From Cyathus striatus (taxonomy: Eukaryota; Basidiomycota; Agaricomycetes; Agaricales; Nidulariaceae), in NCBI GenBank assembly GCA_025738555.1, contig JAOVFP010000019.1, positions 1,426,001 through 1,490,000 on the forward strand: a stretch of DNA of 64,000 bases, given 5' to 3'. Positions within the stretch are counted from its first letter, which is position 1; each line of letters opens with the position of its first letter. Positions 22,677 to 64,000 of the stretch are shown here, piece after piece. The position numbers and the translations under genes are program-made. Under the pieces are notes generated by a model, which was given only the letters and a program-made list of their open reading frames with translations, had not been told where the DNA came from and made no database searches.

Positions 22677-23142
22677 TGTTATGATAAAGTTCTGATTGAG
22701 ACGTTTATCATACAAGTCTGATAGTCACATGATAAACAAGTTCAAGGAACAAGTTATATCAGTATCGAGTTTGAGTAGTCTCTATTCATGAGCTCTTAAG
22801 TTGTTTAGACTTAAGTATGAGTGAAGTGAATGAATCAAAGTAAAGCTAATTTGATTTAAGCTGAAGCTTGAGCTCTACAGCCCAAGTTCCTACTGTTTAA
22901 ATACAAGCTAGTTTACACTAATAATAAGTACCTACGAGTCATAATACTGCGCATCAACTGCGCATTGCTGCAGCACAGTAAGAAGAAAGAAAAGTAGACT
23001 AAGTATGGTAAAATGACTTGAAATGAGTCAAGACCATGTAAATAAGAAGTCATGTGTTTGGTATCAAGAGTGATACAAAACAAGTCAGTGAAATGTAAAG
23101 AAAACATATGTAAATAGACAAAGTAAAAGAAAAAACGTAACA
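22677..23142 (-). repeat. 5' LTR of second retroelement
   Basis: 466 bp. If RNA starts at 22870, U3 is 23142-22871 and R-U5 is 22870-22677. Confidence 0.92.
22896..22903 (-). promoter_or_regulatory. TATA-like box of second LTR
   Basis: TATTTAAA on the minus strand lies 26-33 nt upstream of the RNA 5' end predicted from the self-priming match. Confidence 0.5.
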
Positions 23143-33470: not shown

Positions 33471-34249
33471 AGCACTCGCACTGATGGGCCCCACGGCCCT
33501 CCATGATGAATAATTAAAGAATACCACTGGCGAATATACTTGTCATCGTACGGATACTATAAGCGACGAACGTAGAAGACATTACTGTATGTAAGCCTTC
33601 CAGGTTAAAGCTGGATATATACAATCGACCACTGTGTCAACGTAATCACAAGGACAGTTATCATTTGAGTTATAACAGTGGAGGAAATGGATGAAGACTT
33701 TTTCTCAGTTCAGGAATACATATCACGCTTATTTGCTCAACCTGATGTGTGGAATGAGACTTTCTTGGACTTAGCATGATATCACTATATCACGATTTTT
33801 ATTGGTTCCATAGATAAATGGAATACTAATATCTACATATAATATTTACTGTACTTGGCATATTTTTTGTAAGAAAATGTACGGTATTTGGATACTATAA
33901 TACAGACCACAGCAATCTTTCGAATATGTCGTAAACGCTTAATAAGATAAGCACCTGTCACTCATACTAGCTCCGATTTCTCAGGCACGTTGATATTCAT
34001 TGTTCCTGTGTTCCTTCAACACTGTCACGGTGTCGTCTGCACTCTACTCCATCTTCAAACCTTTCTATACACCATTCGCTGCCACGAGTCATTAACAGCG
34101 ATGTCATAGAACATTATTGTGTAAATCATTCTTCCCAACTTCACAAAGTTACATACTAGTAGTGCAGTATTTGGTTCAATTTATCAACTGCCACCTCTGT
34201 ACTACTAGGTAGTTATAAATAATTCTCAATCACGAGCAACTAGCAATTT

Positions 34250-35414
34250 TCAAAACTTCTTTGGAAGAAGCTCCACAAAACGGCTCTTCTTAATCTGTTG
34301 TCCGAGTTTTCCGAAGTAACGCTCTGAAACAAATGACCAATGAAGAGAGCCTATATATAGTTTTTGCCGTTAGCTATAAATATGTAGAAAGTGATTACAT
34401 GACGCACCGACGATCTAGTTTTGGAGCCCGTAGATGTAAAGTGTAACATCTTTGTCAGTTTTCTGACCCCACGAGGGCACCATTTCTCTTTCCGCTTCGA
34501 ATCAGTCGATGCTGGTTTGGCACCGCTCACCCACAATGTCGACGGCTTCTTGTAAGTCGACGCCCTTCTCATGCATGATAATATAAATCATATTGTGATT
34601 ATCAGAGCGTGCTTGTTCTACATTGTATGAGAATAGATCCTGCTGACAGTTAGAACTAAGCAATCCATAAATTTCAGTAATAACGTACATTAGTCCAGGT
34701 TATGAGGTCGTTTGTTGCGCCCTCAAGAGACTGGATTATGGGATGTTCGACGACTTCCTGGGGTAAGTCAATACGAGCAGCGAATTCAATAAGCTGAAAA
34801 CTGGGTTTTAGGCCGCTATTATCCCTTCGGGTAGCAATATAGGAGTCGAGATCTGGAATGATTCCATGTACTCGATCAGAAGTCTGCTGTGATATCCCTT
34901 TAAAGAAGAGATCCATGCTGTGGATGAATCTCTCTTGACACCCTGGACCTGCAGTTTGCACCAGCCTGGTGAAGAACCTGATTAATCAAAGACAACATGA
35001 ATCAGCATGAATGCGATATCCAATTCAATCAACTCACGATTTCATCATCTTGTCAGCTCTCTTATCAGTATGAAATCCAATAGGGTCATGCATAGCAGCA
35101 ATGCAACAGGCACGGATACTATCCGTTCCTTCCACATCGCATTCATCTAGCACATCATCAAGATTGAACAAATAGTTTGCGACATCATCACAAACTCTGA
35201 GATGAAACATGTCTGCATCTGGATAGCAGGATGCTATCATTTCTCCAACCTTGAGACCCATGAATGCGGTACGCCGTTTCGTATTGTGGTTAACGGCGTC
35301 CAGCAGCCATCGCTCTGATTCCCGCATAGCTACATTGCAATTAATGTTGGTGTGGAGTTGGTAAGAGCATTGAGAAACCAGGTCAGGCAGGACGAAAGAC
35401 ATTGGTGTGCTCAT
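34250..35414 (-). pseudogene. Sesquiterpene synthase copy 1 (arm A), two stops
   Basis: Class I terpene cyclase of the basidiomycete type. ATG at 35414. Exons 35414-35038 (phase 2 donor GTGAGT), 34977-34689, 34639 to about 34405, and a last exon ending at TGA 34250. Exon 1 has the metal-binding acidic motif NLDDVLDE. The NSE motif NDLFSYNVE spans the second splice junction when the acceptor is CAGCAG. The end has [14 protein letters not shown] with the conserved RY pair. Stops: TGA at 34504-34502 (Arg expected) and TAG at 34417-34415 (Trp expected). The enzyme would cyclise farnesyl diphosphate in the cytosol. The giant element sits only about 50 bp upstream of the ATG. Confidence 0.85.
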
Positions 35415-35461
35415 AGTAGTCGGAAGAATGGGAGCGAGAGTAAGTATTTCATCAAAGTGTT

Positions 35462-35469
35462 TCTTATTC
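35462..35469. repeat. Target-site duplication TCTTATTC of giant KDZ element
   Basis: TCTTATTC is repeated at 52826-52833. The single copy at 59738-59745 in arm B, in the same sequence context, is the empty site. Confidence 0.92.
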
Positions 35470-35589
35470 ATAAGTGTCAGCCAATTTGGATCATAAAAAG
35501 CCCAGGTTTTATGAAAAAGTGATCACAAAATCCCTGGCTTCCATGATCACCTCTAAAATCTAATGGTATTCATTATTATTAATGAATGT

Positions 35590-36824
35590 ATGAATTATCA
35601 AAGGTGATCATTGGATGTTATAATAGTGTATGATTGATATTAAAGGGCATATTGACTACTAATGAATACTAATGAATGTGGCAGTGATCATAAGTTATCA
35701 TGGTATGTTATCATAGTGTGTTATTGTGCATAATGACTACTAGTGAATACTAATGAATGTAGAACTGATCATGAGTGATCATGGTATGTTATAATAGTGT
35801 ATTATTGTGCATAATGACTACTAATGAATACTAATGAATGTAGAACTGATCATGAGTGATCATGGTATGTTATAATAGTGTAATATTGTGTGTAATGACT
35901 ATTATTGAATACTAATGAATGTGGAAGTGATCATGAGTGATCATGGTATGTTATAATAGTGTAATATTGTGTGTAATGACTACTAGTGAATACTAATGAA
36001 TGTGGAAGTGATCATGAGTGATCATGGTATGTTATAATAGTGTAATATTGTGTGTAATGACTACTAGTGAATACTAAGAATGTGGAAGTGATCATGAGTG
36101 ATCATGGTATGTTATAATAGTGTAATATTGTGTGTAATAACTACTTAGTGAATACTAATGAATGTGGAAGTGATCATGAGTGATCATGGTATGCTATAAT
36201 AGAGTATTATTGTTCATAACGACTACTAGTGAATGCTAATGAATGTGGAAGTGATCATGAGTGATCATGGTATGTTATAATAGTGTAATATTGTGTGTAA
36301 TGACTACTAGTGAATACTAATGAATGTGGCAGTGATCATGAGTGATCATGGTATGTTATAATAGTGTAATATTGTGCGTAATAACTACTAGTGAATAATA
36401 ATGAATGTGGAATTGATCATGAATGATCATGGTATGTTATAATAGTGTAATATTGTGCATAATGACTACTAGTGAATACTAATGAATGTGGAAGTGATCA
36501 TGAGTGATCATGGTATGTTATAATAGTGTAATATTGTGTGTAATGACTACTAGTGAATACTAAGAATGTGGAAGTGATCATGAGTGATCATGGTATGTTA
36601 TAATACTGTAATATTGTGCATAATAACTACTTAGTGAATACTAATGAATGTGGAAGTGATCATGAGTGATCATGGTATGTTATAATAGTGTATTATTGTT
36701 CATAATGACTACTAGTGAATGCTAATGAATGTGGAAGTGATCATGAGTGATCATGGTATGTTATAATGATGTAATATTGTGTGTAATGACTATTATTGAA
36801 TACTAATAAATGTGGAAGTGATCA
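35590..36824. repeat. Left 81-bp tandem array of the KDZ TIR
   Basis: About 15 copies of an 81-bp unit, measured between successive TCATGGTATGTTATAATAG anchors at 35941, 36022 and 36102. Each unit has two TGATCA palindromes a few bases apart (TGATCATGAGTGATCATGG) and an ACTAGTGAATACTAATGAA part. The array resumes at 37562-37900 after a nested insertion. Confidence 0.92.
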
Positions 36825-37561
36825 CTCACATGGTGGGCTTTTAGCTGTCCAGTTGCAGTTGTCCTTTGGCCTGTCATGCTACCTGTCATGTTCAGCCATC
36901 AGTCACAATGTCATGCATACTGAACCAGTTAGGAACATGTTGATCAAAGTCTCAGAAAAATCAAACTGACCCATGTGGTGTGCCGAGAATATATTCATAC
37001 AATAAAAGTTTGTTATGTACCATTGGAATATTATAAGCATTACTGTACACACATTTTAATGTTTTATATTCTTTATTATACCACTATTCTTCTTAAATGT
37101 AAAGATCTGTGCTACTTATTACTGCTGATTTGTGTAGTATATGCAAGAATTAATTAAAGTACCTTCTGTAGAACTCATCTTTCCCTTTGTGTCTTCACTT
37201 TGTTTAAAATTCATTCCCAATGAAGTCAATATAACTTAAAAGGCATGTCATATAAAATACTTCACAACTTCTCCTCAATAACACTGAAATGAAATTATTA
37301 CTAGATGATACTATACATAATTATAAATAAACTAGTAGGGATGAACACAGTGATGTCATTCTTTTCTAATAATAAACAGTTGCAGCATTGCATCATTTTT
37401 TAACAAGCCTACACAATTCAGCCTTTGTTCTAGATTAATTTGTAAGAAATCATGAGCCAGTTCAAAAGTTGTGACGAACACGTGTCTGATGCAGAACAGG
37501 ACATACAATAGGACAGGCCAAAAGACAACTCAAACAGGACAGCTAAAAGCCTGCCATGTCA
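36825..37561. mobile_element. MITE nested in left KDZ array
   Basis: Inverted ends CATGGTGGGCTTTTAGCTGTCC-like on the left, and ACATGGCAGGCTTTTAGCTG reverse-complemented on the right. TGATCA flanks it on both sides (36819-36824, 37562-37567), although TGATCA is also part of the array unit. 737 bp, AT-rich, no coding capacity. Confidence 0.65.
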
Positions 37562-37900
37562 TGATCATGGTATGTTATAATAGTATATTATTGTGCATAA
37601 TGACTGCTATTGAATACTAATGAATGTGAAAGTGATCATGAGTGATCATGATATGTTACAATAGTACATTATTGTGCATAATGACTACTAGTGAATATTT
37701 ATTAATGTGGAAGTGATCATGAGCAATCATGGTATGTTACAATAGTATATTCAGTTAAATGAAAGTATATAATGATTATTAATGAGTATGGGAGTGATTA
37801 TAAGTGATCATGATATATCTCAATGGTAACTTATAATGTGTAATGACTGATTATGGTATGTTTCAATGGTGTATTTATTGAAATGAAAAGGTGTAATTAC

Positions 37901-38435
37901 TATTAATAAATCACTATCACATCTTCTGACTCCTCTCAATATTCAGAACAATGTTTATCACATCTTCCAATGCCCCTGAGCATTGTTAACAGTGGTCTCA
38001 TACCACGTTCACATTTTCTGACTCCTTTTTGTATTCATAAATGTGGCTTCAGTTCTCTACCATGTCTTCTGACATCTCTTAGTGTTGACAACAGTGGTAT
38101 CAGTCCACCTTTACCTATCTAATCCCTTACTTGTGAAATCTTGGGTATTTTTAGCATGGGTACTATAGGTTGCAGGCAACCTGTGTGTTATTTTATATTT
38201 AAATGCAATGTGAATATAATTAACTTGAAGTATATGAATATAGGTCAAATATACTTTGTATTCAGAGATTCCAAGTCACACTTTTAATAACTATCTCATG
38301 GAGATAAAATTAATCAGTATGAACTAGTATGAAAACACAGTAATGAATGATAATGAAGTAGAATATATTGTTAGCTCAAGTTAAATGAATTATAATGAAA
38401 GTTTTAACAATGCAGATAGTATTATAATAATGCAG
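37901..38435. other. Spacer, nothing recognised
   Basis: AT-rich sequence between the end of the 81-bp array and the foldback block; no gene seen. Confidence 0.4.
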
Positions 38436-38439
38436 GATT

Positions 38440-39240
38440 TGTCAGAACAGATTTGATATTGTTCTAATAATGCTGAACACATTAGAATGAGGTGCGGTAA
38501 CTGGATGTGTTAAAATGAAGTCAGTGCCATTCTAACAATACTGAACTTGTCACAATGAAATTGTAGCAAGTTCAACATAATTAGAATGCTACTGACTTCG
38601 TTATAACGAACCCAATTCCGTTAGAACTATACTGACTTTGTTCTAAGGTGTTAAGCATCGTAAGCATGATTCTGAATTCATTAAACGAAGTCGGTATCGT
38701 TCCGATGACACTGTATTCGTTATAATAAGTTCAGCATCATTTAAACAATACTGATCCTACCAGAACGAAGTTGGAACGAAGTCAGTATCGTTCTGACGAC
38801 GCTGAATTTATTATAATAAGTTCGGCATCGTTTAATTCAAATTTATGAAAACGATACCAGCTTTGTTATAACGAGTTCAGCATTGTTAGAATTATAGCAA
38901 TGTCATTCTAATGAATTTAGAATTATTTTAACGATACAAACTTTTTTTAATGAGGTCAGTATCGTTTAAATGATGCTGAACTCGCTATAACGAATTCAGC
39001 ATCGTTAGAATGAAGCTGGTATCATTCTAACAAAGTCAGTATCGTTTAATTCAGCGTCATCAGAACGATGCTGAATTCGTTATAGCGAGTTCAGCATCAT
39101 TTAAACGATACTGACCTCATTAAAACAAAGCTTGTATCGTTAAAATAATTTTGAATTCATTAGAATGACATTGCTATAATTCTAACGATGCTGAACTCGT
39201 TATAACAAAGCTGGTATCGTTATCATAAATATGAATTCAC
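38440..39240. repeat. Foldback block of CAGTATCGTT / GTTATAACGA units
   Basis: Dozens of short units such as GTTCAGCATCGTT, GTCAGTATCGTT and GTTATAACGA occur in both orientations. The right part is a large inverted repeat with arms at about 38834-39014 and 39056-39237, nearly perfect over about 180 nt, around a 40-nt centre. No coding capacity. Confidence 0.8.
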
Positions 39241-39904
39241 TAGAATGAAGTTGCTATTATAACTAATGTATTGCTGAACCCCGAGGGCCCAACAAATTAC
39301 ATAACTTAAACCTCATCACAGTAGTTCAATACCACTTACATTGTATGCATTTATATATGTTGCTACCAAGTTTAGTGTCACACATTTTTGAACCCCCCGT
39401 TTGTGGGTTTGCATGGGTCACGGGTCGGCCACTGTTCCATCAATTATTAACCCATATGCAAAGTAACTGTTCATCAGAATACCTCATTATTGATTAATGT
39501 ATAGAACTCAATAATGGTACCGGTAAATATTATAACTAGGCAACAAATTCACGTTAAGAAGTATTTATGAATATAAACAAATAGAACCATAGGCATAAGG
39601 GGAATTAAAACGAACATACGTTCAGCGGTATAAATGTTTGAGCATAGCATCAAGGACTGATGGAACAATAATGAATTAAAATGACCATATCACAGGCCGT
39701 CTAAATGTAATGGAAGAAAATGATATAAGAGTGTAAAAAGCGAAATTAAAGAGATTAAATGCTGTATTGAGGCGATAAAGCAAGCAGAATGAATTTAAAA
39801 AATGTTAAAGAACATAGAATACCAATATATGTGCGTCAATCAGCATAAAGTTGCAGAGCGCTCTTATTTGCGCTTACTTCCTTCCACTAGTAGCAATTTA
39901 TAAG

Positions 39905-42560
39905 TTACAAACTGAAAGACAGTTATGTACAGTAATTTTTACGTACCGTTTCTTTGGCCTCGCTGAGTCACTGCTGCCATCTAAGCAATGCTTAGCCCCA
40001 ACAATAACAGGAACCAATTGAACCGAGTTGACTTGTTGAAAGACCCAGGTTACATCATCAACAGCATTCCAAAGGTTCGCCTCTGATGCATCCGGTTCAC
40101 GCTGAATTGCTTTAATCCACCAGGACAGCGACATGACGATACAGCATAGACCTAACGGACCCCACGGAACAATTGCTCCCATCCATTGTTGACTGATGGC
40201 AAAATCCTGGTAAGGTTACCGTCATCTGCAATACGCCATTGAGGTTGAATTGAAGACCACCATGTGGTCCAAGTGTTACCGAACATTGCTGCCGTCACAG
40301 GTGGTATCGCCTTCGTGCTTCGGTGATTCTTGATCCACCACCCAATCTCCTTTGGGCGATTTTTAGTGGGGAATGCCTGTCATATATTATTAAATTCAGT
40401 TCATAAATTATGTATCGCAGTTAAATGAAGACTTACACTTGTATCAGGGTTTTTCAGCTCAAACCTTTTCCATTCCGTAACAAGGGCCATCCAACGTGCA
40501 TCTGACGATACATTACACAGGTATTCCATATATTTATTTGCGTGGTCAGGCAAGGAACTATTGTCGACATTTCCAGCTGAGGTGTACATTAAGTTATACA
40601 ACCTAACACGTTATGAATAGACATGCTCACCCTGAGACGGCTCCATCCTCGCTTCAAGATCTGATACTTCTTTACTCTGAGTGGATGAACACGCCGTTGC
40701 ACTTGAGAATAGAGTTAGAACGAATATGATCAATGGAGCAGGATTGAATATTACTTACTTATGTACTTGACTTCCAAGCACCGGGCTTGATCTACATACA
40801 ACAAAGAAAAGCTTATGAGCACTTGGACTTAAAGTCAATGGAAGAAAACAAACTATACATACGTTTCAATGGACGCTCCTTCGTTATCAGAATTTCCTGT
40901 CATATGAAGTTGAATGTCACCATTCGTAATAGCACCATTCGAACCCCCACTGCCGGCATGACTTGTCGACACATCACTGATTCCTGTATTATTGTGTGCA
41001 GGGCTCGATGTCTGTGGGATGTTACTGGTAGATTATGCACAAAGTCAGGTAGTGTACAATAGCACGATAAATATTACACCTTACCTACACCCCCCAGTAG
41101 AATTGCTTCGCAGGCGTCCAGACTTACGTACTGTGGCAACAGATTTCGAAGTTTTTTTTGACTTCCTGGTTCGTGTATTCTTTCTGTTGAGACTTGGTGG
41201 TTGATTCGGGTCGTTAGCTATAGATTCCTTCAGCTGAGTGACGAAGTCAGCATGCCTGGCACGGCCTTCAGAAGGGGAAACATTGACTTTTTGAACCGGT
41301 GGCGGCGTGGGTTCCTGCTCTGGGGCTGGGCTCCCAGCGTGGGGCTCCTCGTTGTTCCCATCGTCGTGCACTCCTCCCCTGTTCTCCAATCCCTCGCCTT
41401 CGGCTCTACCAGTCTGTTTCTCAGAGCCTGGGGTAACCGAGCGCTTTGGATCCTCGGCAAGACTTCGTGAAATGCACTCATCTTCAGCTATAGTCTATTG
41501 ATCAGCTCATGCTACGACGACAAGACATAAAAGGGGAATTACACTTACAGAAACACCCGAAAAGAAAATCTTCAAACTTATTAGTGATACTTTCTTCAAA
41601 TTGCTTACCCCCATCCATGACTCCCAAGTGTCTCCGTTCTTATTCTTGCCATAGTGAACACTATCAAGTGAATGTTGACATGGTTGAGCGACTCGTAATA
41701 TTTGACCGAAATCGATATACTTACATTACACTTTCCATCTTCCCACCTCGACAAGGACGCGGTCCTCCTCCAAAGACAGTAAATTTCCAGCCAGTATATT
41801 CTGAAAGCCTGGAGAGCACTTTCCCAACTGTCGCAGAGAGCTTTGCAATTGAACTAAATAGTTAGTGTAAGTGCTACAGTTATATGACATATTTGATAGC
41901 GGATACAATTACTCACTTCTCGTAGCCTATGTTGCGATTCTCCTCAGTGTCTGTCTCAGGATTGAAACTACCTTTGCGCTGCTTAGCGTGAAGCTCCTGC
42001 ACCTCTTCCCTAATGTCCTCGTCTTCTTCATCGTATAGACTTTGTATGAGTTCGTTCTCAAGTTCAAATCGTGTTTTGTCCGCCTCAACGCCTGTGGGTA
42101 ATGACGATAGGTATGCTTCCCAATGAATTTCCAGGAGCGGCTCGAGATAATCATGGTACAAGCTATGATAAACCTGCCACTGTTGTAACGTCGGTTTCGC
42201 AGTAGTCCTAGGCCGGAGGTCAAGAATACCCCGCATTACAGTGTTGGATCTGCGGGTGTTGTTGCTGAACCACCTGTACAATTGCTACGGTAGCGTAAGT
42301 TGTAACTTGATATGTAGCGGAGATCCCCTAAAACATACCTTACATCGTTTCTTCCACTTCTCAGACTTCGCGTTCATACCCCACATGACCTTGTCCTTCT
42401 TGGTAGGTTTAGGAAGGCCCCAAACCTGCGCGTACTCGTTGTATAAGCTTGCGAGCCATGCTGTTATTTTCTGGCCCTTCCCGGTCTCCTTAGCATCGAG
42501 ATACTCTGGAATTTTCGCGCTGAGCCATTTCTTCTGCTCCTTCGTTGCCCATGAACGCAT
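39905..42560 (-). CDS. Carried multi-exon gene, uncharacterised Agaricomycete family
   Basis: Minus strand, ATG 42560, stop 39907-39905. Exon 1 (42560-42339) begins MRSWATKEQKKWLSAKIPEY. Exon 2 (42284-41917) has RWFSNNTRRSN, MRGILDLRPRT and YDEEDEDIREEVQELHAKQR. Exon 3 from 41853 has EYTGWKFTVFGGGPRP. An exon at 41494-41085 is low-complexity and basic (TRKSKKTSKSVATVRKSGR). Later exons have CNVSSDARWMALVTEWKRFE, WWIKNHRSTKAIPPV and NAVDDVTWVFQQV. It resembles, from memory, a large Agaricomycete family with an N-terminal WATKEQ...EYLDA start and a TGW..F..GGP core; its function is unknown to me. A one-base shift near 40222 breaks the last long exon, through decay or sequence error. It lies wholly inside the KDZ element, so it moves with it. 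Confidence 0.65.
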
Positions 42561-42599
42561 ATCAGTTGACAAGTTTGAAGTGTAGAGGTCCTAAATAAA

Positions 42600-45500
42600 G
42601 AAATTGAATGCGAGTCGTCAAACGTCCGTTCGACTGAGGAGTCCTAAGGTGTCCAAAAGGGGAATTAGTAATGATGGTATGTCGGCGGGAACGTAACAAG
42701 AGACACAAACTTCGAAATGAAGTTCAAGCGCAAAGACTTGACAAATTTTCAAAAACGAAACGGTGAAATGGAAGTTGAGAGCGCTGACAATACCCTGAAG
42801 ACAGAAATGGAGACTCAAAGCCTGAGTGCGAGAGGGGAAAATTAATTGGGTTGGGTGGAAGTAGATAATAGGTTTGTATAAAAATTGGAATAAAGAAGTT
42901 ACTTAACGAGGAATGGTCGAAACGGCGGGGGTTATTCGTGTTTGAGATCGTAGATTTTGAGGAGAATATGGTAAAGTACGAAACATAGAGCGTGGCGATG
43001 AATTAGGAGAAAATTTCAAGAATAAAACTTGGGGGAGGGACACTTGAGGCGATGACACGACCTCTGGTAAAGCTCATTGTGCATTCAGTAGCACTTGGTA
43101 GTGTGCAGTACCGACGATCTTGAGTTCTTGATGCATAATTACGACAAGCGTTGCGATGAATTAGGATAAAATTTGAAAAATGAAACTTGAGGGAGGGAAA
43201 CTTGAGGCAATGACGCGACCTCTGGTAAAGCTAATTGCACATTCAGTAGCACTTGGTAGTGTGCAATACTGACGATCTTGAGTTCTTGATGTGTAATTGC
43301 GGCGTTCGTGGCGATGTGGAAGTGTCGGCGTTGGAGGGAACTGGTGGGAGAGCTTGATTGAGAGGGGAAGAGCAAACACGAATAACGCGTTGATGTGTGC
43401 ACGGCTAGATTTGATAGCGCTATCTTTTGAGATAATGATCACGTAACTTCAACCACGGTGGATATGATTGCAGGAGGTACATACAAAACCAGACGAGCAC
43501 ACATGAAGCACAGTACTTATCACTACGAGGATGGGTCAAACACAAACCTTCATTGCAGAGAATGATATTTAATATACCTATAATTACCAATACAAATATA
43601 AATGTCAATCTGAATTAAGGCTCAAACCAATGGTCAGGTATTCAATAATACGGCACCATTCCACTGCGTATCACTATGGTAAATACATCAATTTCTCAAA
43701 GACAGCTGTATCTTAGTGTACATTTTAAGTATTCAAGAGCTGTGAAGAGGCTGGCTGGTTCGGATGCCAAGTTATCTTAATGACCGGAGATAACTACAAA
43801 TTACTAGTATTTCCTCAGTACATTTTACCATCGTAAGTTTCTCCTTAGTGCTTTTTCTATTTGCAATGTTTAATAACATGAGGACGAAGATGCCAGCCAC
43901 TGATACTGCGGACACGTCGATATCTGGTTTTCTGACAGCAGACATAAGAGGTGAGAATGCCGTGGTACTCAGTTCATCGTACGTATGTAGTACAACCCAC
44001 AAAAACCTTGTTGTCTACGAGAAATCTTTCATCACTGACGAAATGATCTGACTCAGTTCCAGTGTAACCCACAGATCAGGAGGTTTGAAGCCAAGTCTTC
44101 CGGGTACACTGACATAAACAACAGGAAAGTTGGATTGTATCTATATTTTTCGATATTAAGATCAACTGGGCCTACTAACAAAGTCAGACTTTTACCACCG
44201 ACGATAGGTTAAATCTTACCCATCAATAGCATATAACGTTGTCATGGAGTAGGAGAGAACTAACAGCCTCCTTATTGTTTGAGAAGATTATGTATACTTC
44301 TTGGTTTCACAGGGGTTTAATTAGAATCCGCTCAGCCATAGAGATAAAGAAGATGCATAATAGCATCTGAAACCCTAGCACCACTGTTGCAATTAGAATA
44401 TGAGAAAACTTCCATAGTTGAAGCCTCGAGGACAGGATCAAGAAGATCACCTCATCAGATTGTTGCTGTGAACCAAGCTATGAATTATGATAATATAAGT
44501 TCTGTAGAAATGAACCGCAAGGATAGGCGCTGAACCAGGCTTGAGCATGTAAGAGATCGTGAAGCAGTACATTGGTCGCGGTTATGACGGAGAAAAGGAA
44601 ATGAACGAAGCATTGCATGATGAATAGTTAATTATATAAACACGAGTGCCTTAACAGCGCTGAGCATTGAACAACAAGCCTCCATGGTAATTAATTAGCC
44701 TGTGGACATGGTAGAAAGGCGAGTGGAGGGCCTGCTTATGAGGGTTGCATATTGGGGAATGAAGAGCCCCTACAAGAAGAGTCCACAATTTTCAAAGTTG
44801 TTTATGGTCTCATGTTGCCGACTTAGGGGAAAAGAGTTAGAGACGCGACGATGTTTGAATGTCATACCATTTACTGAGTGGGAGGGACGAAATGCGACAC
44901 ATTACACATTGATAATTACACTTACACATTGATTTTTACACGTACACACAGATTTCCACACATACACATTGGCCCCACACATCACATTAGTTTCGGCACA
45001 TACACATCGTTGTTTTGGTGTCCAATCCGACACTCTTGCATGAGAAGAAAGGTAGGTATAGCTGTAGGGAGGCGCCTGCCTTGCGAAGGTTAGGCGTCTC
45101 AGCACCGCCAAGAGAGATGATGATATTGGCTAGGCACCGATTAACGATACAAATAAAAGTAAGGAAGGATGAAAGGTGAAAAAGAGAACAAAGGAATGAA
45201 TATAAGATAAGTAAAATAAAGAGACGGACTGCCAGGGTGCGTCAAAACCCTCATGTGAGAAAACCCTTTGGGAAAAAACTAACAATCATAGGGAAAAAGC
45301 TACCGGCAGTACGAAAGATATGATTTAGGGAAAGGGATGGGTGGGTAGCGAAAATTAGTTAAGTAATAATAGTGCTTGAAATACAGTAGATAGAGCTAGT
45401 GCTGGTGCAGGAGGGAGGAGGAATCAGTAACGACAGGGGGAAGCCATCGAGAATGTACCTGGTGCAGGAGGGGAGGAGGAATGCGGATTGTCATATTCCT

Positions 45501-46800
45501 TTGCTCTCCTTGTACCAATTTTTCAGCAGGCTCCAACGAAGCTACGCTTAGTCGTACGACTGAATAGAACGAGATCGAGTAGAGTCATTGTGAGTCATGA
45601 ACCTCGATGTAGAGGTCATAATGAGGAACTCACACATAATGATCCACATCTGTGCCGGCCACCTGTGAAGCAGCAGTGCTTCACGGCCCAAACACTACAG
45701 CGCTACTGATCCTAGTATTTGCATTGGTGTAATAACGAATAATAAATTGCACCTATATAATGGGCAGTGAGTGGGTATGAGGAAAGCAGGGTGTAGGAGG
45801 GACATGCAATGGCGCGAGTGAGGTGCGTAGAATAAAGGGCATGGATCCAGACAGCGCAGATGTTAGTGGTGCAGAGATGGGTGCAGACCTGGAGAATGAT
45901 AAGGTTAGCTAAGGTGTGAGACGGGAGTGTGTGTGGGACAGATAGACTCCCCTTCATCATTACGAGTTCTCACCAAAATCATACTCGCAGTTCACAGGGT
46001 CCAGCATTGAAACTGCACGCAGGAAGGGTTAGGGTGGATGTGTTTGAGGGTGGATCATTGATAAAAAGTGAGTGAATTGGGCAAATTGGGGTACTGGTAT
46101 GTCGATTCATGCGCCGTGATACCTGTGTGTTTTCGATAGTGAGGGTGTAAATACAGAGAAGAAGCATACCTTCGAATGCGTGGCATTGCAACTGCCTGAT
46201 CAAGAGCATAACAAGCGGCTATCGCATTGTGTCTAGTCTCATCGATTAGAGGAACTTCGAATGCTGTGTTTGAATGCATGGCTTGTGCATGGCGTTGATC
46301 CTCGTATGGGCATTGTGTCTGGTCATGCTGGTTGTAGAACCTTCAAATGGTACACAGCATTGAGAGATGGTGGAGACGATGGTGTGCCTTGGGATGTCGG
46401 AGATGTACAGGGATCATAAGCTTCAAGTAGTATGAGGGAGGAAGGAACATGTGTATGTGGCAGCAGGAATACAAGGGAGGAAGGGACACGACATGTGTAC
46501 ATGGCAGTGCATCAGCAGGTCTCGGTAGTGCGATCACCGATGACATCGATGACACGTACTGACAGGTTGTATGAACAGCAATATCACACCCTTCGCTTCT
46601 AACACAAATACTAGGGCTAAAGGGATATGACACACGTACATAGCAGTACAACCACAGGTCTCAGGTGGTGCAATTGCCGATGACATGTACTGACAGGTTG
46701 TACACACAGTAATACCGCACTCTTCCATTCTTCGATTAATTAGATCTAGCTTATCATTGATCGAGTTGAGATCAACTGCATGTCTTGCGCATGTGCGACA
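42600..46800. other. Gene-poor interior of KDZ element
   Basis: No gene recognised. Visible structure: a 158-bp tandem duplication (42995-43152 and 43153-43310), similarity of 43000-43442 (reverse) to the MITE at 31152-31715, CACATTACACATTG low-complexity at 44900-44990, a short duplicated GGTGCAGGAGGGAGGAGGA at about 45402 and 45460, and a roughly 140-bp imperfect tandem duplication at 46480-46730. Confidence 0.45.
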
Positions 46801-46812
46801 CTGACCATTAAA

Positions 46813-46821
46813 TATATAAAA
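46813..46821 (+). promoter_or_regulatory. TATA-like box upstream of KDZ transposase
   Basis: TATATAAAA lies about 95 bp before the ATG of the transposase, in a suitable place for a core promoter. The exact start of transcription cannot be seen. Confidence 0.35.
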
Positions 46822-46911
46822 ATGTGTATACATCTTCTCATATCATACACTTTTACACTCTTCAGCATTCATTCGTACCTCCTCACTTATCATCTACTCA
46901 GCAAAAGTCAA

Positions 46912-49900
46912 ATGGCTCGAAAGCGTCGAGGTTCATCTAGTAATGTTGATAAGTCTACTGCTTCTCAAAAGCGGATACGACATGCAACAAATGATGAAAA
47001 TATCTCTGTTCAGTTCCGCACTGGTATAAGATCTCGGGCCCAGGCTGAAAGTAGTACAAGTCAAGCTACAATGAGACAGTCCTCTGGTACAGTTCACAAT
47101 GTATCAAGCACATCTCTTTCAGTTGAAGACAGCAATGGAAAAATAAAACTAAAGAAAGAGTCACAGAGAAGACGTAAAATTGATCATACTAAAGTAAAAG
47201 AGGCAGAGAATGCAGAGCAAGACTCTCCAGAAGTACAATTATATGATGATGATGAACCAATATCAGCTGTGAATGATATTGATCAATCAATAAAATATAG
47301 ACGAGAATGTAATCAAAAATCAGCAGTAAGTATATAAATTCAATAATACTACATAATCTAATAAATTATACAGGAAAAGTTGAGAGAATGGGTAAAATTT
47401 CGCAATGAATTTCTTGATGAACTTCTTCGTCATGATGGAAAAGGAGATTATGCTAGTGAAGACAACTGCTCAGTATGTAAGAAAGAAATTGGTGTTTATA
47501 AGTGCAAAGATTGCTTTCATGGAGCACTACTACAATGTAAAGATTGCATGATAAAAGGACACACACATCTCCCACTACACAGAATTGAGGTAAGATATTG
47601 TACTTTTATTTGTCATGTACTTTATATTCAATTTAAATCACTTCAGAGCTGGAATGGGCTTTATTTTGAAAAGGATACTTTGCATAATTTAGGGCTTTGT
47701 ATACAACTTGGACATGGAGGAAGAGCTTGTTCAAGAGCAATTGACACTGCAGTTGATATGGTGGTTGTTGATATTACTGGCATTCATCATGTTTCAGTCA
47801 TATTCTGTGATTGCAGAACACAGGCTATTCCCGGTATACACAATTAATGAGAGTGGGCTGGTTTCCAGCAAGTTTTATTCGACCTCAAACTGTGTTTACA
47901 TTTGAATGTCTTGATACATTCCATGAACTTACACTACAAGGAAAGACTACATTATATGACTGGTATTATACTCTATGCCGAAAAACTGATAAGTGCAAGC
48001 TGGAAGATGAAGTGGTGAGTAGTAATTTGGATAAATTACAATAACTAACACTCTAAATTATAGAATCGTTACAATGAGTTTAGAATTGTTATGCGAATGT
48101 GGCGAATTCTTTTTATGTGTAAACGTGGTGGTAGAGGTCAATTCACTGAAGGTATAGATGGAACAAAAAAAGGAGAACTAACAGTTGAATGTCCTGCATG
48201 TCCTCATCCTGAGAAAAATCTTCCTGAAGACTGGAAAGATTCAGAACTATTGAAGTATGTATTATTTTATTTTATTTAATAATTGAATAAGTTTATTCAT
48301 TTAACTTGGAAGATTTCTATATATAATGTATTTGGCAGTTGATGCAAATTTCAAATTGAGCTGCAAGGAACGTGGTATCCAAGATATAGAGCTTATGCCT
48401 GGATGGGGTCCCTTTGTTGAAGAAACAAGCTACCAAACACATCTTGCAAATCATACTGAAAAATCTGAAGTATGTTGTTTATTTTACATTGATGCTATTC
48501 TCACAACTCCAGTAGATTAATACTTGTGATTCAGAACATGATGCAATACTTCAAGCTGGCATACGCTCAGCTCCAGGCCATTCTGTAACGGGTACAGCAG
48601 TTGTAATTTGTTCAAGACATACATTAATTCGTCCAAATGGAGCAGGTGACTTACAAAAAGGAGAACGGTAAGTCAATATTATCATTCATAGTGGCTACTA
48701 TGATATTAACAACTATTTTTATAGATACTGTAATATTGACTACATTGTACTCTCCACTCTTGCTGGTTTTCTTCTTCCATGGATAGTGATCACATATGAT
48801 ATTGGGTGCCAATGGTCAAAAAATCTGAGACAACGTATAAATTCATATCCTGATGAAATGAGAGTTTCTCCTGATACAAGAATAGACATTGGTGTTCCTT
48901 CCTGGCACATAAATAGCCATGGAAGCTCATGTCGTAGCAACTTTGCTTTGGCTTATTTTCCTGGAGTAGGTCGAACTTGTGGAGAAGAAGTTGAAACTAC
49001 CTGGTCTAGTAGCAACCATCTGCGCCCAAGTACACGTGAAATGGGTCCAGCTTCAAGGCATGAAGTACTAAATGATCAGTGGAGTGGGTGGAATTTTCAG
49101 AAGATTATTGGAATGAGTGTGTAATATTCACTTCATAGCTCTAACAAATTATTAAATTAATTACTACAGGACCACACTTTATAAGACATTATAATGAGGC
49201 AGTTATAATGAGCAAAAAACAGAAAGAAATTTTTGACAAATTTAATGCTACATTTCCACCTGATATAACAGCAAAATGGGAATCTCAAATTATAGCATGG
49301 AATATGAATCATACAAACCCAAATCCATATGATGAGCCAGAGTGCAGTAAGGTTTTTTCTTTTTGTTAAACCACAGCTAACATTTCCTAGCTACCACTTT
49401 ACAAGATGTTAGACTTGAGCTAACAAGTGAAGAAGCTGCTGCTGCTGAAAAAGGAATTATTCCAAAACATAAAGTAACTTTAACAAAATTTTTAATACTT
49501 GGATTTGAGTTAGAGGAACAACAGTATGTTAAAAATATCTGATTAACTATATATATACTTATACTGATATTATTTAGACATGCACTTAAACTTGAGGTAT
49601 CACAATTGAAAAAGAAATTGACATCTAAAGAACAAGCTGATCTTCAAGATAAACGGATTGCCCTCATGAGTCGAATTATAAAATGGCGTGAAATTCAAAT
49701 ACTACATATGCCAGAACTGAAAGATCTATTAAAGTCTCCAATGGAAAATAATTTGGGTATATCTAATACAGAGAAGGACTACATTCTAGCTGAATCAATT
49801 CCATTGCATCTTCCATCATCACTTTCAGAGGAACTGCAAGCTACATTGAACATTAAAAATATTTCCAAATCAGAACTAAGATTGAGATTAGCACAAGCTG

Positions 49901-50727
49901 ATGATGCATTGTCAACTATTCAAAGGCATTTACGTGTTATGTCATCATTACGAGAGTTCAAGCAACATAATGCATCAGGTACTGGCAATGAGCCAAATAC
50001 ACGTATAAGAAAAACACTTGAAAGTTATAAAAACAAAGCACAGCTATCAGCAAATATATATGGAACAGCACGAAAAGCAATAGGCACACTAGACCCTAAT
50101 GGAGATTGGAAGTCACAGTTACTTGAGCTTAAGCCAAAAGATATTACTGGACCTGGTAAAGACCCAGATAACACAACAAGTAGTGGTCGGTTTGAAATGT
50201 CTTGGATTTGGCTTGTACCACGTCCTTCATCAAACTCAGATCACAATAGTAATGAACTCAATGATAGCCTCAGAGTTGAATGGTCAAAATCAAGAGCAAG
50301 AAGAGATAGATGGTTTGAAGAAGTTCAAATTCTTAGAGAAGAAATGAGACGAGTTATTGCATACTTTGAATGGAAGAGTAATTGGTGGAGAAGTATAAGC
50401 AACATAAGATCTTATGAAGATAATATTAAACAGGATATAAAACAAGGTGTCCTAGCATATGCTTTAAAACAAGCATCACTGTGTGAAAGACTTGCAGAGA
50501 GTTGTGCACAGTGTTGGCTTCCATTACTTAAAAAAGATAATTATGAACCAGATTGGGCTGAAAAATATATAACAAAAATTGATAAATTGCCCATGGCTGG
50601 TCAGTCAGTATTGAATTCTGAAGATGATAAAAGTGGGGATAGTGATGATGAGTGGCAGGATGAAGATAATGAATATTTTGATGATGATTATGAAGAAGAT
50701 GAAGAAGAATATGCACTGATAGATTAA
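46912..50727 (+). CDS. KDZ transposase with CxC2 domain
   Basis: Ten exons: 46912-47325, 47374-47589, 47647-48014, 48064-48254, 48313-48469, 48516-48667, 48725-49116, 49170-49346, 49391-49523, 49578-50727; all introns are GT-AG of 43-61 nt. Exon 1 is a basic, disordered N-terminus (MARKRRGSSSNVDKS). Exon 2 carries the CxC2 cluster (CSVCKKEIGVYKCKDC, CKDCMIKGHTHLPLHRIE). The catalytic core has DDE candidates in AVDANFKL, VITYDIGCQWSK and RTCGEEVETTW. Also diagnostic are FHELTLQGKTTLYDWYY, ECPACPHPEKNLP and GAGDLQKGERYCN. A long C-terminal helical region ends in an acidic tail. Exon 3 is 368 nt, one base short of in-phase, with the shift near 47814-47820 (FCDCR/YTQLMRVGWFPA). Otherwise the gene is intact. 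It would cut and paste the element by its TIRs in the nucleus. Confidence 0.9.
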
Positions 50728-51230
50728 GTAGGTAATCATTAGTGAATGGATTTATAAATGTTAAAGTTTATCAGTACATATATATACATTTAAATTCTAT
50801 ATTCATAAGTTGCTTTAATGCTATGAATTAATTGGTATGTATAAATCATATCTTACAATCACTACTACATTCATTAGTGGTCATTATGTACAGTTATTAC
50901 ACCTTTTCATTTAGAATGCATGTTTGTAACATTCAATAATCACTTAAGATCATTCCAAAGCTATCTCACATCCAATAAATCATTTTGCTCCTGTATTGTA
51001 TTCTGTAGCAAGTAATCATTGCACACAAAACTAGATTATACAGGCTGTCAAATACTGTCATATATATTGCAGTTAATGTACTAGTATCTCTCATGAGCTC
51101 TTTCATTTGAATGAATATGCCATTGGAACATGCCATGATCACTTATAATTACTCCCATATTCATCAGTGGTCATTATGCACTTTCATTTGAATGAATATG
51201 CCATTGCAATATATGATAATTATTCATGAT
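50728..51230. other. 3' flank of transposase grading into right array
   Basis: No gene. From about 50860 increasingly clear, decayed copies of the 81-bp unit appear (ATTCATTAGTGGTCATTATG). Confidence 0.5.
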
Positions 51231-52690
51231 CACTTTCATATTCATTTAGTATTTACTAGTAGTTATTACATGCAATAATATGGTATTATAATATACCATG
51301 ATCACTCATGATCACTTCCATATTCATTAGTATTTGCTAGTAGTCAGTACATGCAATAATACACTATTATAACATATCATGATTACTCATGATCAGTTCC
51401 ACATTCATTAGTATTCACTAGTAGTCATTACACACAATAATATACTATTATAATATATCATGATCACTCATGATCAGTTCCACATTCATTAGTATTCACT
51501 AGTAGTCATTACACACAATAATATACTATTATAATATATCATGATCACTCATGATCAGTTCCACATTCATTAGTATTCACTAGTAGTCATTATGCACAAT
51601 ATTACACTATTATAACATACCATGATCACCCATGATCACTTCCACATTCATTAGTATTCACTGGTAGTCATTACACACAATAATACACTATTATAACATA
51701 CCATGATCACTCATGATCAGTTCTACATTCATTAGTATTCAATAATAGTCATTACACACAATATTACACTATTATAACATACCATGATCACCCATGATCA
51801 CTTCCACATTCATTAGTATTCACTGGTAGTCATTACACACAATAATACACTATTATAACATATCATGATCACTTATGATCACTTTCACATTCATTAGTAT
51901 TCACTTGTAGTCATTACATACAATAATACACTATTATAACATACCATGATCACTTATGATCACTCCCGCATTCATTAGTATTCACTAGTAGTCATTACAC
52001 ACAATAATACACTATTATAACATATCATGATCACTCATGATCACTTTCACATTCATTAGTATTCACTGGTAGTTATTATGTACAATAATACACTATTATA
52101 ACATACCATGATCACTCATGATCAGTTCCACATTCATTAGTATTCACTAGTAGTCATTACAGACAATAATACACTATTATAACATATTATGATCACTTAT
52201 GATCACTCTCACATTCATTAGTATTCACTAGTAGTCATTACAGACAATATTACACTATTATAACATATCATGATCACTCATGATCACTCCCACATTCATT
52301 AGTATTTACTAGTAGTCATTACAGACAATAATACACTATTATAACATACCATGATCACTCATGATCAGTTCCACATTCATTAGTATTCACTAGTAGTCAT
52401 TACAGACAATATTACACTATTATAACATATCATGATCACTCATGATCACTCCCACATTCATTAGTATTTACTAGTAGTCATTACAGACAATAATACACTA
52501 TTATAACATACCATGATCACTCATGATCAGTTCCACATTCATTAGTATTCACTAGTAGTCATTACAGACAATAATACACTATTATAACATACCATGATAA
52601 CTTATGATCACTTCCACATTCATTAGTATTCATTAGTAGTCAATATTCCATTTAATACAAATCATACACTATTATAACATCCAATGATCA
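51230..52690. repeat. Right 81-bp tandem array of the KDZ TIR
   Basis: About 18 copies of the reverse complement of the left unit (ACCATGATCACTCATGATCA, TTCATTAGTATTCACTAGTA). Individual copies differ by point changes; two longer segments near 51460-51600 and 52240-52560 repeat over two or more units, so amplification went on in blocks. Confidence 0.92.
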
Positions 52691-52833
52691 CCTTTGATTA
52701 CTCATACATTCATTAATAATAATGAATACCATTAGATTTTAGAGGTGATCATGGAAGCCAGGGATTTTGTGATCACTTTTTCATAAAACCTGGGCTTTTT
52801 ATGATCCAAATGGCTAACACCCCTCTCTTATTC

Positions 52834-53450
52834 CTGATTAAATACTGAAGCGTGTGCAAGGGAGCTAGCTTCCTACGGAATCGATTACGGTTGGTATATG
52901 TACGTTACTGGAGTTTTGAAGTAAGACACTGTCAGATGCACTTACAACGAATTGTTCAATAACACTCGATCCCATATTCGACCTGCATTCCAGTGGCACT
53001 CGTCACTTGTTAAAAATCGTTAGCAGAATGAACTTGTGTCACCTAATAATAGCAATATTCATTTATGATGTCGATAGTGACTAGATTTTTGAGATAAGCA
53101 TCATACGGGTTATGTCGGCGAGAAATTTGGAGTCGGAAGCACATTACAACGCTGCGTATGGACAGTGGCGGAGCATTGCATTAAGTTAGTAGTAGTTCTG
53201 AAGAGCGCAACACAAGCATTTGAATGCAAACCTCAATAGAGAGTCGGAGAGTCGGAATTGTACTGAATGAATCGGGAATGGGTTGCATACCTACTAGCTT
53301 AGCTGCTGGTTGAAAGTCAAACATATGAACAGTTACAATCTTTCCCTCAAGGCTCGGCAACTCGGAGCCACCAGAAAGGTTTTTTCTGACTCCGACAGTC
53401 TAAAGCCCATATACTATCATCCGATAAGACATCTGCCTAGAAACTGAAAC
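52834..53450. repeat. Arm A resumes: upstream region of terpene synthase copy 1
   Basis: CCTGATTAAATACTGAAGCG onward matches 59746-60300 upstream of copy 2. It is the original 5' flank of copy 1, displaced 17 kb by the KDZ element. No gene. Confidence 0.8.
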
Positions 53451-57625: not shown

Positions 57626-58519
57626 AGGATAACTTGATGTGGGTCCTGGGTTGGCTTAGCACTCTAGCTCATGCTGATGAGCTAATTTGAAGAAGGGCAC
57701 TACAAGAGAATATGTACATTGTCATACGATGGATATTATAAGCGATGAATGTAGAAGATGACATTACCATATATCAGCCTTCCAGCTTGAGACTGGATAT
57801 ATTACAATCGACCACTGTTTCAACGTGCTCGCAAGGAAAGTTAGCAACTAAATTATGGCCAGTGGTGGAAAGGATGAAAACTTTAGCTTGGGTGAAGAAT
57901 ATATATCATGCTTATTTCTGGATATATTACAATCGACCACTGTTTCAACGTGCTCGCAAGGAAGGTTATCATTTGAATAGTAGCAGTGGTAGAAAGGATG
58001 AAGACTTCGGCTTGGGTGAAGAATAACATATCGTGCTTTTTTACACAAATGGGGAATGAGGAGACTGCTTGAACTTTACTTGATTTACTTTACCACGATT
58101 TTCATCGGTTCCATAGATAAATGGAGTAATATCTACGTAGAATATTTACTCAGTACCATACTTGGCATATTTTTTGCAAGAAAATGTACGGTACTTGGGT
58201 ACTATAATACAGACCACAGCAATATGTCAGAAAATTGTAAGTGCTTGACAAAGTAAGCGCCTGGCGCTCATACTCTCCGATTTCTCACACACGACGCTAT
58301 TTGTCGTTCCTCCATTCCTCAAACACAGTGTCGTGACTGGTCTCCACTCTATCTTACCATACACCATTCGGTGCTCGTCGTTAACACATTATTGTGTAAG
58401 TTATTCTTCCCAACTAACTTCACAAGGACAACTGACATTGTAGATATACAAGTATTCGGGGCATTAGCTATAAACAAGTCTCTAACATTCATAAGATTAT
58501 CAAGAGCAATTGGAAATTA

Positions 58520-59690
58520 TCAAATATTCTTTGGAAGGAGCTTCACTACACGGTTCTTCTTGATCTGTTGTCTGAGTTTTCCGAAGTAACGCTCTGACAC
58601 AAACAACCAATGGAGGGATCCTATATGTTACAAGACAGTCATGAGGTATCTTGTAAGATAAATAAGCCAAATATATTACACACCCACAATCCAGTTCTGG
58701 AGCCCGTAGATGTAAAGTGCGACATCTTTGTCAATGTCCTGACCCCACAAGGGCACCATTTCCCTGTCCGCTTTGAATCGGTCAATGCTGGCTTGGCACT
58801 GCTCACCCACAATGTCCACGGCTTCTTGTAAGTCGACACCAGTCTCATGCATGATAATATAAATCATGTTGTGAGTATTGGAGCGGGCTTGTTCGACATT
58901 GTATGAGAATAGATCCTGCTGAGAGTTAGAACCAAGTAATCCATAAATTTCAGTAAATAACATACATTAGTCCAGGTTATGAGGTCGTTTGTTGCACCCT
59001 CAAGAGACTGGATTATGAGATGTTTGACGACTTCCTGGGGTAAGTCAATACGAGCAGCGAATTCAATAAGCTGAAAACTGGGTTTTAGGCCGCTATTGTC
59101 CCTTCGGGTAGCAATATAAGAGTCAAGATCCGGAATGATTCCATGTACTCAATCAGAAGTTTGCTGTGATATCCCTTTAAAGAAGAGATCCATGCTGTGG
59201 ATGAATCTCTCTTGACACCCTGGACCTGCAGTTTGCACCAGCCTGGAGAAGAACCTAATTAATTGAAGACAAATAAATCAGCATGAATGTGATATCCAAT
59301 TCAATCAACTCACAACTTCGTCATTTTGCCAGCCTTCTTATCGGTATGAAATCCAACAGGGTCACGCATAGCAGCAATGCAACAGGTACAGATACTATTT
59401 GTTCCTTCCACATCGTATTCATCTAGCACATCATCAAGATTGAACAAATAGTTTGCGACATCATCACAAACTCTGAGATGAAACATGTCTGCATCTGGAT
59501 AGCAGGATGCTATCGTTTCTCCAACCTTGAGACCCATGAATGCGTTGCACCGCTTCGTATTGTGGTTAACGGCGTCCAGCAGCCATCACTCTGATTGCCG
59601 AGTAGCTTCTTTGCAATTAACATTTGTGCGGAGTTGGTAAGAGCATTGAGAAACCAGGTCAGGCAGGATGAAAGACGCTGGTGTGTTCAT
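58520..59690 (-). pseudogene. Sesquiterpene synthase copy 2 (arm B), two stops
   Basis: ATG 59690; exon 1 to 59314, exon 2 from about 59255, exon 3 from 58915, last exon ending at TGA 58520. The acidic motif NLDDVLDE, the split NSE motif (N / DLFSYNVE) and SERYFGKL are all present. TGA stops at 59588-59586 (QSE-stop-WLLD, Arg in copy 1) and 59151-59149 (QQTSD-stop-VHG, Arg in copy 1). Exon 3, damaged in copy 1, is intact here, so the two copies decayed independently after duplication. Confidence 0.85.
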
Positions 59691-60299
59691 AGTAGTCCGG
59701 AGAATGGGAGCGAGATTAAGTATTTCATCAAAGTGTTTCTTATTCCTGATTAAATATTGAAGTGTGTGCAAAGGAGCTAGCTTCCTACAGAATCGATTAT
59801 GATTGGTATACGTTACTGGAGTTTGCAGTAAGACACTGTCAGATGGACTGACAATGAATTGTTCAAAAACACACTTAGTCCCACATTCGACCTGCATTCC
59901 AGTGGCACCATTACAACCCGTTAGTAGCATGAACTTGTGTTATCTAATAATAGCAATATTCGTTTATGACGTCGATAGTGATCAGATTTTTGAGATAAGC
60001 ACCACGTGCGTCATATTGGCGAGAAATTTAGAGTCAGAAGCACATTACAATGCTGCGTATGGACAGTGGCAGAACATTGTATTAAGTTAGTAGTAATTCT
60101 GAAGAGCTCAACACAAGCATTTGAATGTAAACCGTCGGAGAGTCGGAATTGTATTGAATGAATCAGGAATGGTTTGCTTAGCTACCAGTTCATCTGCTTG
60201 ATGAAAGTCAAATATGTGAACAAAACCTTGACAAAACCTCAACAAAACATGATTTTTCCCTATGCACCAGTAAAGTTTTTTCCAATTCCGACTATCACG

Positions 60300-62100: not shown

Positions 62101-62529
62101 CATTTCCGTACCTCACTGTATCCTCATTGTCAATTACAGATACTTACCTCATTCATTACCGTCTTTGTATATCTGTCGTACGTACGCTCTGAGAAATCCA
62201 GCTTCGCATTCCACCCCTTTATCTCTCAAATATGTGCTCACTGGATCTGAAGGATGGATGGACATCCATCCACTCGCATCATTTCTTTGTCAAGAGGATA
62301 CCGCCGAGAAAATATCCTCCTCCGCAGCTTTCTAGTAGAATCCTTTTTATACCCAATGCCTACCTATCAAACTTATATATTATTTGATGTTCATTGTTTC
62401 TTTTATCTCAAAAATGAAATTGCTTTACTGCTGGATACGAAGTAATGATATATTATAGTTTCATATATATTAGGCATTAGTTATCTAATCTAATCTAATC
62501 TTCAAGATAATATGAAGGGAAAACAAATA

Positions 62530-63695: not shown

Positions 63696-64000
63696 AGTAG
63701 AAGAAAGAATGAGAAAGACAGTATGTACATGGGTATTGTGTCGAAGATGTTTCGCATTCCGGTATATATACCAGTGAAAGTGTAAAGGAGCTCCATACAG
63801 ACACGAGTATGAGGTGTCGGATGCACTCACAATGATTTTTGTATAACAATCCCGATCCGATTTTTGATCTGCATTTCAGTGGCACTCGCTAAATACGTAG
63901 CAGTGTCATCTATTGGTTCCATGGAGGTCAGGTTTCTGCGTCATACACAATAACTCACACATCCATGTAAGGTGGGGAGTTGAAAGCCCAATGTCCTCAG
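63696..64000. other. 5' flank of terpene synthase copy 4
   Basis: Presumed promoter region. 63780-63900 retains weak similarity to the flanks of copies 1 and 2 (ATTTCAGTGGCACTCG). No further gene. Confidence 0.4.

What the first reader, a model, noticed from the sequence alone, without database searches (positions are those of the whole stretch)
35470..52825. 17.4-kb KDZ transposon with exact ends and a paralogous empty site
Seen in sequence: inverted ends, an 8-bp TSD (TCTTATTC) and, in the tandem duplicate arm, the uninterrupted target at 59738-59745. Inside is a ten-exon CxC2-KDZ transposase with all DDE candidates and only one apparent frameshift. Fungal KDZ genes are known, but complete elements with proven ends, of this size and with other genes inside, seem rarely described. 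This is the best candidate in the window for a little-known system.
Basis: partly seen in the sequence, partly recalled or inferred. Interest (0 to 1): 0.92.

Follow-up and report, generated by a model that had tools for sequence, protein, structure and literature searches.

The report
Two-gene KDZ jumping element in mushroom
A mushroom-type fungus carries a complete 17-kb jumping gene of the KDZ class with exact ends, and the transposase of this class regularly sits back to back with an undescribed second gene that has diversified in step with it, suggesting that these elements may need two proteins and long arrays of binding sites to move.

Summary
The element is real and complete. Its ends are 35469-52825 (17,357 bp); the empty target lies in the tandem paralogue at 59738-59744. 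The target duplication is 7 bp (TCTTATT), not 8: of 42 end pairs, 26 show it exactly, 6 with one mismatch, 10 do not. The eighth base is the element's own terminal C. 65 left tips with at most 2 mismatches exist; 30 paired copies that I sized are 1.1-8.2 kb. Only the window copy showed a full-length transposase gene of this family (40 of 104 candidates scored).

Head-to-head with the transposase lies a gene without Pfam match. 35 of 40 transposase loci, window included, carry it in the same arrangement. Both proteins diverged in step over 20 elements (r 0.92; best of 5000 permutations 0.37). Both ends are about 1.7 kb of 81-bp repeats with paired TGATCA sites; two other families have similar arrays. 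I read it as a two-protein transposon whose partner probably binds the arrays; binding is inferred. Both genes of this copy have a frame break. All literature searches failed, so novelty in print is unchecked.

The parts
35469..52825 (.). whole KDZ element, 17,357 bp
   Evidence: tips and target duplication
35462..35468 (.). left copy of 7-bp target duplication TCTTATT
52826..52832 (.). right copy of 7-bp target duplication TCTTATT
59738..59744 (.). uninterrupted target in the tandem paralogue
35469..36823 (+). left terminal repeat: tip CATAAGTGTCAGCC, then 81-bp repeats with paired TGATCA sites (14.5 copies)
36824..37561 (.). nested insertion with about 88-bp inverted ends (79.5% alike) inside the left array; absent from the C14 copy
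37562..37870 (+). inner part of the left 81-bp array
39900..42560 (-). second gene (partner), head-to-head with the transposase; conceptual ATG at 42560; first two exons within 41916-42560, with conserved exon boundary and LxxWFxN motif; frame break near 40.17-40.19 kb in this copy
   Evidence: exon limits and the gene's 3' limit read by eye
46912..50727 (+). KDZ transposase gene, about ten exons; ATG 46912, stop 50725-50727
   Evidence: exon limits read by eye
47648..48014 (+). CxC2 exon with the frame break near 47.83 kb
48326..49116 (+). KDZ catalytic domain exons
51100..52825 (-). right terminal repeat: tip GAGGGGTGTTAGCC, then 81-bp repeats (17.5 copies)
35037..35414 (-). start of a sesquiterpene synthase gene; the element lies 54 bp upstream of its ATG
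   Evidence: 7ofl, E 2.5e-39

Best explanation
It is a cut-and-paste DNA transposon of the KDZ superfamily that works with two proteins. SHOWN: exact ends, 7-bp target duplication, long terminal arrays of 70-81-bp units holding paired TGATCA sites, a KDZ transposase, and a second gene head-to-head with it that has been inherited together with it through many element families. INFERRED: the transposase cuts at the two tips and inserts with a 7-bp stagger; the second protein is an element-encoded DNA-binding partner that recognises the arrays at both ends, either to bring the ends together for cutting or to keep the element from being silenced. Short copies that keep tips and arrays are moved in trans. 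In the window copy both genes carry a frame break, so this copy is probably no longer a full source, unless the breaks are assembly errors.
For: Ends and 7-bp duplication: 26 exact, 6 one-mismatch, 10 without, of 42 pairs. Tip pattern 64 forward + 64 reverse in the genome, reversed-pattern control 0. Two full-length relatives of another family (73% nt transposase) show exact 7-bp duplications, GAATGAT on C8 (19,518 bp) and TATATTC on C3 (17,669 bp); I took the 7-mers from their right flanks before fetching the left ends. Unit moved as a whole: the C14 copy starts exactly at the left tip with unrelated flank and carries window 37562-46583, second gene included, at 96.5-97%. Deletion derivative: C6:3383158-3385152 keeps both ends and window 50193-51737 at 94%. 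Partner gene: 61 hand-merged loci; 47 have a KDZ match within 25 kb (random placement of 56 of them: mean 3.3, max 9); for 45 the nearest is head-to-head, and the other two have another KDZ locus head-to-head within 20 kb. 35 of 40 transposase loci have it. Mantel r 0.92, n 20, 0 of 5000 permutations as high. dN/dS in seven diverged pairs 0.14-0.48 (second gene) and 0.14-0.30 (KDZ). TGATCA 19.9-25.4 per kb in ends of three families, 0.1-1.1 per kb in interiors and flanks.
Against: No direct evidence that the second protein binds DNA: Pfam none, PDB sequence search none below E 0.65, model mean pLDDT 58.6 with no fold match at E <= 0.001. 14 of 61 second-gene loci have no KDZ match within 25 kb and 44 of 91 hand-merged KDZ loci have no partner found with this query; truncation or divergence may explain it, but this was not tested. 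10 of 42 end pairs show no duplication. On C2 a third member of the other family gave no left tip in the 7.2 kb fetched. In six pairs of close copies dN/dS of the second gene is 0.40-0.88, which looks like decay after insertion. The 20 elements include close copies and are not independent. Only one genome could be searched.
Confidence: 0.75

Rival explanations
1. One-protein KDZ transposon with a passenger: the transposase does all the work and the second gene is a long-lived hitchhiker with a role unrelated to transposition.
For: 14 of 61 second-gene loci have no KDZ match within 25 kb; no DNA-binding fold was found.
Against: 35 of 40 transposase loci keep it in one arrangement; it diverges in step with the transposase (r 0.92) and shows low dN/dS in diverged pairs; a passenger should be swapped or lost more often.
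Confidence: 0.2
2. The second protein acts against host silencing rather than in transposition: it binds the arrays and opens the element's chromatin, as recalled for VANC proteins of plant VANDAL elements.
For: Arrays of paired TGATCA sites in ends of three families; conserved head-to-head gene.
Against: Nothing here separates this from a role in bringing the ends together; no methylation or expression data were available.
Confidence: 0.3
3. The locus is a chance composite: a KDZ transposase flanked by unrelated repeats, or an assembly artefact.
For: Nested insertions and repeats inside.
Against: Exact duplication plus paralogous empty site, same tips elsewhere, a composite copy on C14, complete relatives on C3 and C8.
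Confidence: 0.02

Closest known systems
KDZ (Kyakuja-Dileera-Zisupton) superfamily in basidiomycetes (Iyer et al. 2014, recalled; not held)
   Same: CxC2 cysteine cluster and KDZ domain over the Pfam cut-offs; inverted ends; multiplied in the genome (159 KDZ exon matches counted)
   Different: second gene conserved head-to-head, long paired-site arrays, 7-bp duplication; no TET/JBP match in this genome (but no control genome rang either, so this does not show absence)
Zisupton of fish (Boehne et al. 2012, recalled; look-ups failed)
   Same: same transposase superfamily (by the Pfam family's name)
CACTA (En/Spm) elements of plants with TNPA and TNPD (recalled)
   Same: works like: two element proteins, arrays of short repeated sites near both ends, many short derivatives
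   Different: other transposase family, no CACTA tip, duplication 7 bp and not 3 bp
VANDAL elements with VANC anti-silencing proteins (recalled)
   Same: possible analogue: an extra element protein acting on motif arrays
   Different: Mutator-type transposase; no sequence link tested

Membership tests
KDZ superfamily | KDZ transposase domain PF18758 | tested here: met
   132.3 bits, cut-off 26.6
KDZ superfamily | N-terminal cysteine cluster (CxC) | tested here: met
   CxC2 49.1 bits, cut-off 27; exon broken by a shift in this copy
KDZ superfamily | acidic catalytic residues | tested here: inconclusive
   D/E positions at VDANFKL, TYDIGCQW and CGEEVE recur in homologues where the alignments cover them; that these are the catalytic ones is recalled
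KDZ superfamily | terminal inverted repeats and target duplication | tested here: met
Zisupton (fish type) | 8-bp target duplication (recalled) | tested here: not met
   7 bp exact in 26 of 42 pairs; 8-bp reading in 5 of 42
CACTA (En/Spm) | CACTA tips and 3-bp duplication (recalled) | tested here: not met
   tips CATAAGTGTCAGCC / GAGGGGTGTTAGCC, 7 bp
CACTA-like two-protein mechanism | second protein binds the subterminal sites | not testable with these tools
   needs a binding assay
Starship-type large fungal elements | tyrosine recombinase captain (recalled) | not tested
   only chosen open frames were scanned; the transposase found is KDZ

The most novel reading that the evidence does not exclude
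A whole clade of KDZ transposons is a two-component system: transposase plus a previously unrecognised, co-evolving protein that reads arrays of paired TGATCA sites at both ends, controlling movement or silencing of the element and of some 60 short derivatives.
Probability: 0.45. Interest if true: 0.78.

Novelty: new variant of a known kind. Interest (0 to 1): 0.62.

Why it matters
KDZ transposases are abundant in mushroom genomes, yet how they move is poorly known (both as recalled; not checked in print). Exact tips, a 7-bp duplication, dozens of short derivatives and a co-inherited second gene make the system testable: one can ask in an excision assay which parts are needed. If the partner proves to be needed, it would be a further case of a eukaryotic DNA transposon with a separate end-binding protein.

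Tried and rejected
8-bp duplication: rejected. Tandem-duplicate arm as an excision footprint: rejected, because the joined flanks align without a gap. Segmental duplication as the origin of the C14 copy: rejected, because homology begins exactly at the tip. TET/JBP cargo: no match, not conclusive. Homeodomain-like reading of the second protein (LxxWFxN): a lead by eye only; Pfam, PDB sequence and fold searches gave no support.

Paper searches and look-ups 42, 43, 62, 66, 83 all failed; look-up was not held. So nothing was read in print and every literature statement is recalled.
Full report
THE OBSERVATION. Among the 120 of 238 relatives listed for the transposase's C-terminal exon, those with an organism name are from mushroom-forming fungi (Amanita, Candolleomyces, Pholiota, Cyathus). 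Left and right junctions read as described. Joining 300 bases of flank on each side with one copy of the target gives an ungapped junction against 59738-59744 and 86.6% identity over 620 columns. The flanking repeats are a tandem duplication (57918-59745 against 33611-35469 at 82.8%; 59738-60222 against 52826-53331 at 84%).

ENDS. A 32-base tip pattern with up to 3 mismatches matches 64 + 64 times in the genome, its reversed control 0 times; only the first places are listed. There are two kinds of tip, usually one at each end. I read both junctions of 42 pairs, the window included: 32 and 10. At least three further pairs visible in the listing (near C10:1918k, C11:2584k and C11:3520k, which look nested or duplicated) were not fetched. 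26 of 42 have an exact 7-bp duplication (22 + 4), 6 have one mismatch (4 + 2), 10 have more (6 + 4). Two of those 10 have two alike ends: L091/L092, of a related subfamily, and L151/L152. Shuffled flanks of the 32 pairs reach a mean of 0.06 and a maximum of 1. So the element is 35469-52825 and its tips line up as CATAAGTGTCAGCC and GAGGGGTGTTAGCC.

TERMINAL ARRAYS. Each end is an array of 81-bp units (14.5 copies left plus two to three beyond the nested insertion, 17.5 right), with about two TGATCA sites per unit, 10 bp apart, i.e. about one helical turn (read). TGATCA stands at 21.0 and 21.4 per kb in the two ends against 0.6 in the interior and 0.4 and 0.1 in the flanks. The C13 relative (both arrays) and two members of family X (right ends), with units near 70 bp, show 19.9-25.4 per kb in the ends and 0.5-1.1 inside. 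A 738-bp nested insertion splits the left array.

COPIES. Thirty pairs, sized from tip positions, run from 1,146 to 8,168 bp, median 3,992. With 40 of 104 candidates scored, only the window copy has the full-length transposase at high identity; next come a 97% piece of 536 bp on C6 and relatives at 75% or less. The C6 element is an internal-deletion derivative. The interiors of the other short copies were not read. The C14 copy begins exactly at the left tip (left repeat 88.8%) and carries window 37562-46583 at 96.5-97% with extra segments, then matches end; no right tip or transposase was found in the 8 kb beyond.

THE TRANSPOSASE. CxC2 and KDZ hit over their cut-offs. Homologous exons align across 48326-50667. 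The frame break near 47.83 kb is in this copy only; 11 of 11 relatives looked at keep one frame there, though 4 of the 11 show in-frame stops.

THE SECOND GENE. On the minus strand, 39.9-42.56 kb, lies a multi-exon gene (model by eye). It has no Pfam match even at E 10. Its N-terminal part is found at 61 places, which I merged by hand from the listed matches (153 in all); in most of the 22 places aligned, the exon boundaries agree. 47 of 61 have a KDZ match within 25 kb among 91 KDZ loci that I merged by hand from the list, which is not complete. For 45 of the 47 the nearest one is head-to-head; the other two (C12:1711463, C23:1311206) have another KDZ locus head-to-head. Random placement gives a mean of 3.3, maximum 9, for the 56 places on contigs whose length I had entered. 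From the other side, 40 loci merged from the 46 matches were checked: 35 have the second gene head-to-head within 20 kb, including the window; those without are C4:2609k, C12:1719k, C5:849k, C12:2534k and the C6 deletion derivative. Of the 91 KDZ loci, which include weaker and more distant ones, 44 have no partner by this query. Over 20 elements with both pieces in hand, the amino-acid distances of the two proteins correlate at 0.92; the best of 5000 permutations is 0.37. The 20 include close copies, so they are fewer independent lineages. In 13 pairs chosen by me, dN/dS of the second gene is 0.14-0.48 in the seven diverged pairs (KDZ 0.14-0.30) and 0.40-0.88 in the six close ones (KDZ 0.21-0.63 in the four that could be computed). 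These are rough: one dS is near saturation and a few intron-edge codons may be included. In this copy the gene has a frame break near 40.17-40.19 kb; the C14 copy reads through in one frame.

TEST ON ANOTHER FAMILY. For family X (73% nt) I read the right tips of four copies, noted the 7 flanking bases of three, then fetched the regions of their left ends. On C8 and C3 the predicted 7-mers stand directly before a left tip GAGGGGTGTCAGCC, giving complete elements of 19,518 and 17,669 bp (tip positions); on C2 no such tip was found in the 7.2 kb fetched. So large size, two genes, arrays and 7-bp duplication recur.

HOW IT WORKS. Shown: the anatomy and the co-inheritance. Inferred: the partner reads the arrays. 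En/Spm (TNPA) and VANDAL (VANC) are recalled analogues for bringing ends together and for anti-silencing. The predicted structure of the N-terminal part, folded with a translated intron left in and 7 sequences, is helical but of low confidence (pLDDT 58.6) and has no fold match at E <= 0.001, so binding rests on the arrays and the co-evolution only.

NOVELTY. All eleven paper searches and five look-ups failed, one look-up was not held, and of three protein-database queries only the transposase query was answered. So I cannot say what is in print. As far as I recall, a conserved second gene in KDZ elements and a 7-bp duplication are not standard descriptions. I file it as a new variant of a known kind.

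Noticed in passing
window 33611-35414, 57918-59745, 62524-63727: Tandem copies of one region; the start of the first is a sesquiterpene synthase-like gene (7ofl match). The element sits 54 bp upstream of its ATG, so it may cut it from its promoter. The other copies were not tested for the domain.
   Followed up: partly
window 40170-40190: The partner gene of this copy has its own frame break; could be real or an assembly error.
   Followed up: partly
window 36824-37561: Nested 738-bp insertion with about 88-bp inverted ends inside the left array, absent from the C14 copy.
   Followed up: partly
window 42590-43160: Stretch upstream of the second gene recurs at 28 places at 72-80% identity (40 of 481 candidates scored); by eye only two of them lie near a second-gene locus. 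A 158-bp tandem unit lies at 42989-43316.
   Followed up: no
window 38834-39237: Self-complementary 404-bp stretch (89.9%), probably another nested element.
   Followed up: no
L013/L113 (C3:1987k-1996k) and L012/L112 (C3:2026k-2035k): Two very similar two-gene elements lie about 30 kb apart in mirrored orientation; another mirrored pair is on C9 near 3.01-3.06 Mb. Possible palindromic duplications.
   Followed up: no
window 7227-7992 / 14057-14821 and 19751-20222 / 22671-23142: Direct repeats of 98.8% and 95.3% identity, perhaps long terminal repeats of retroelements.
   Followed up: no
G000 C3:736988-740842 (L091, L092): Related subfamily with CATTAG tips and alike ends; flanking bases are inverted copies of each other, not a direct duplication.
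   Followed up: no
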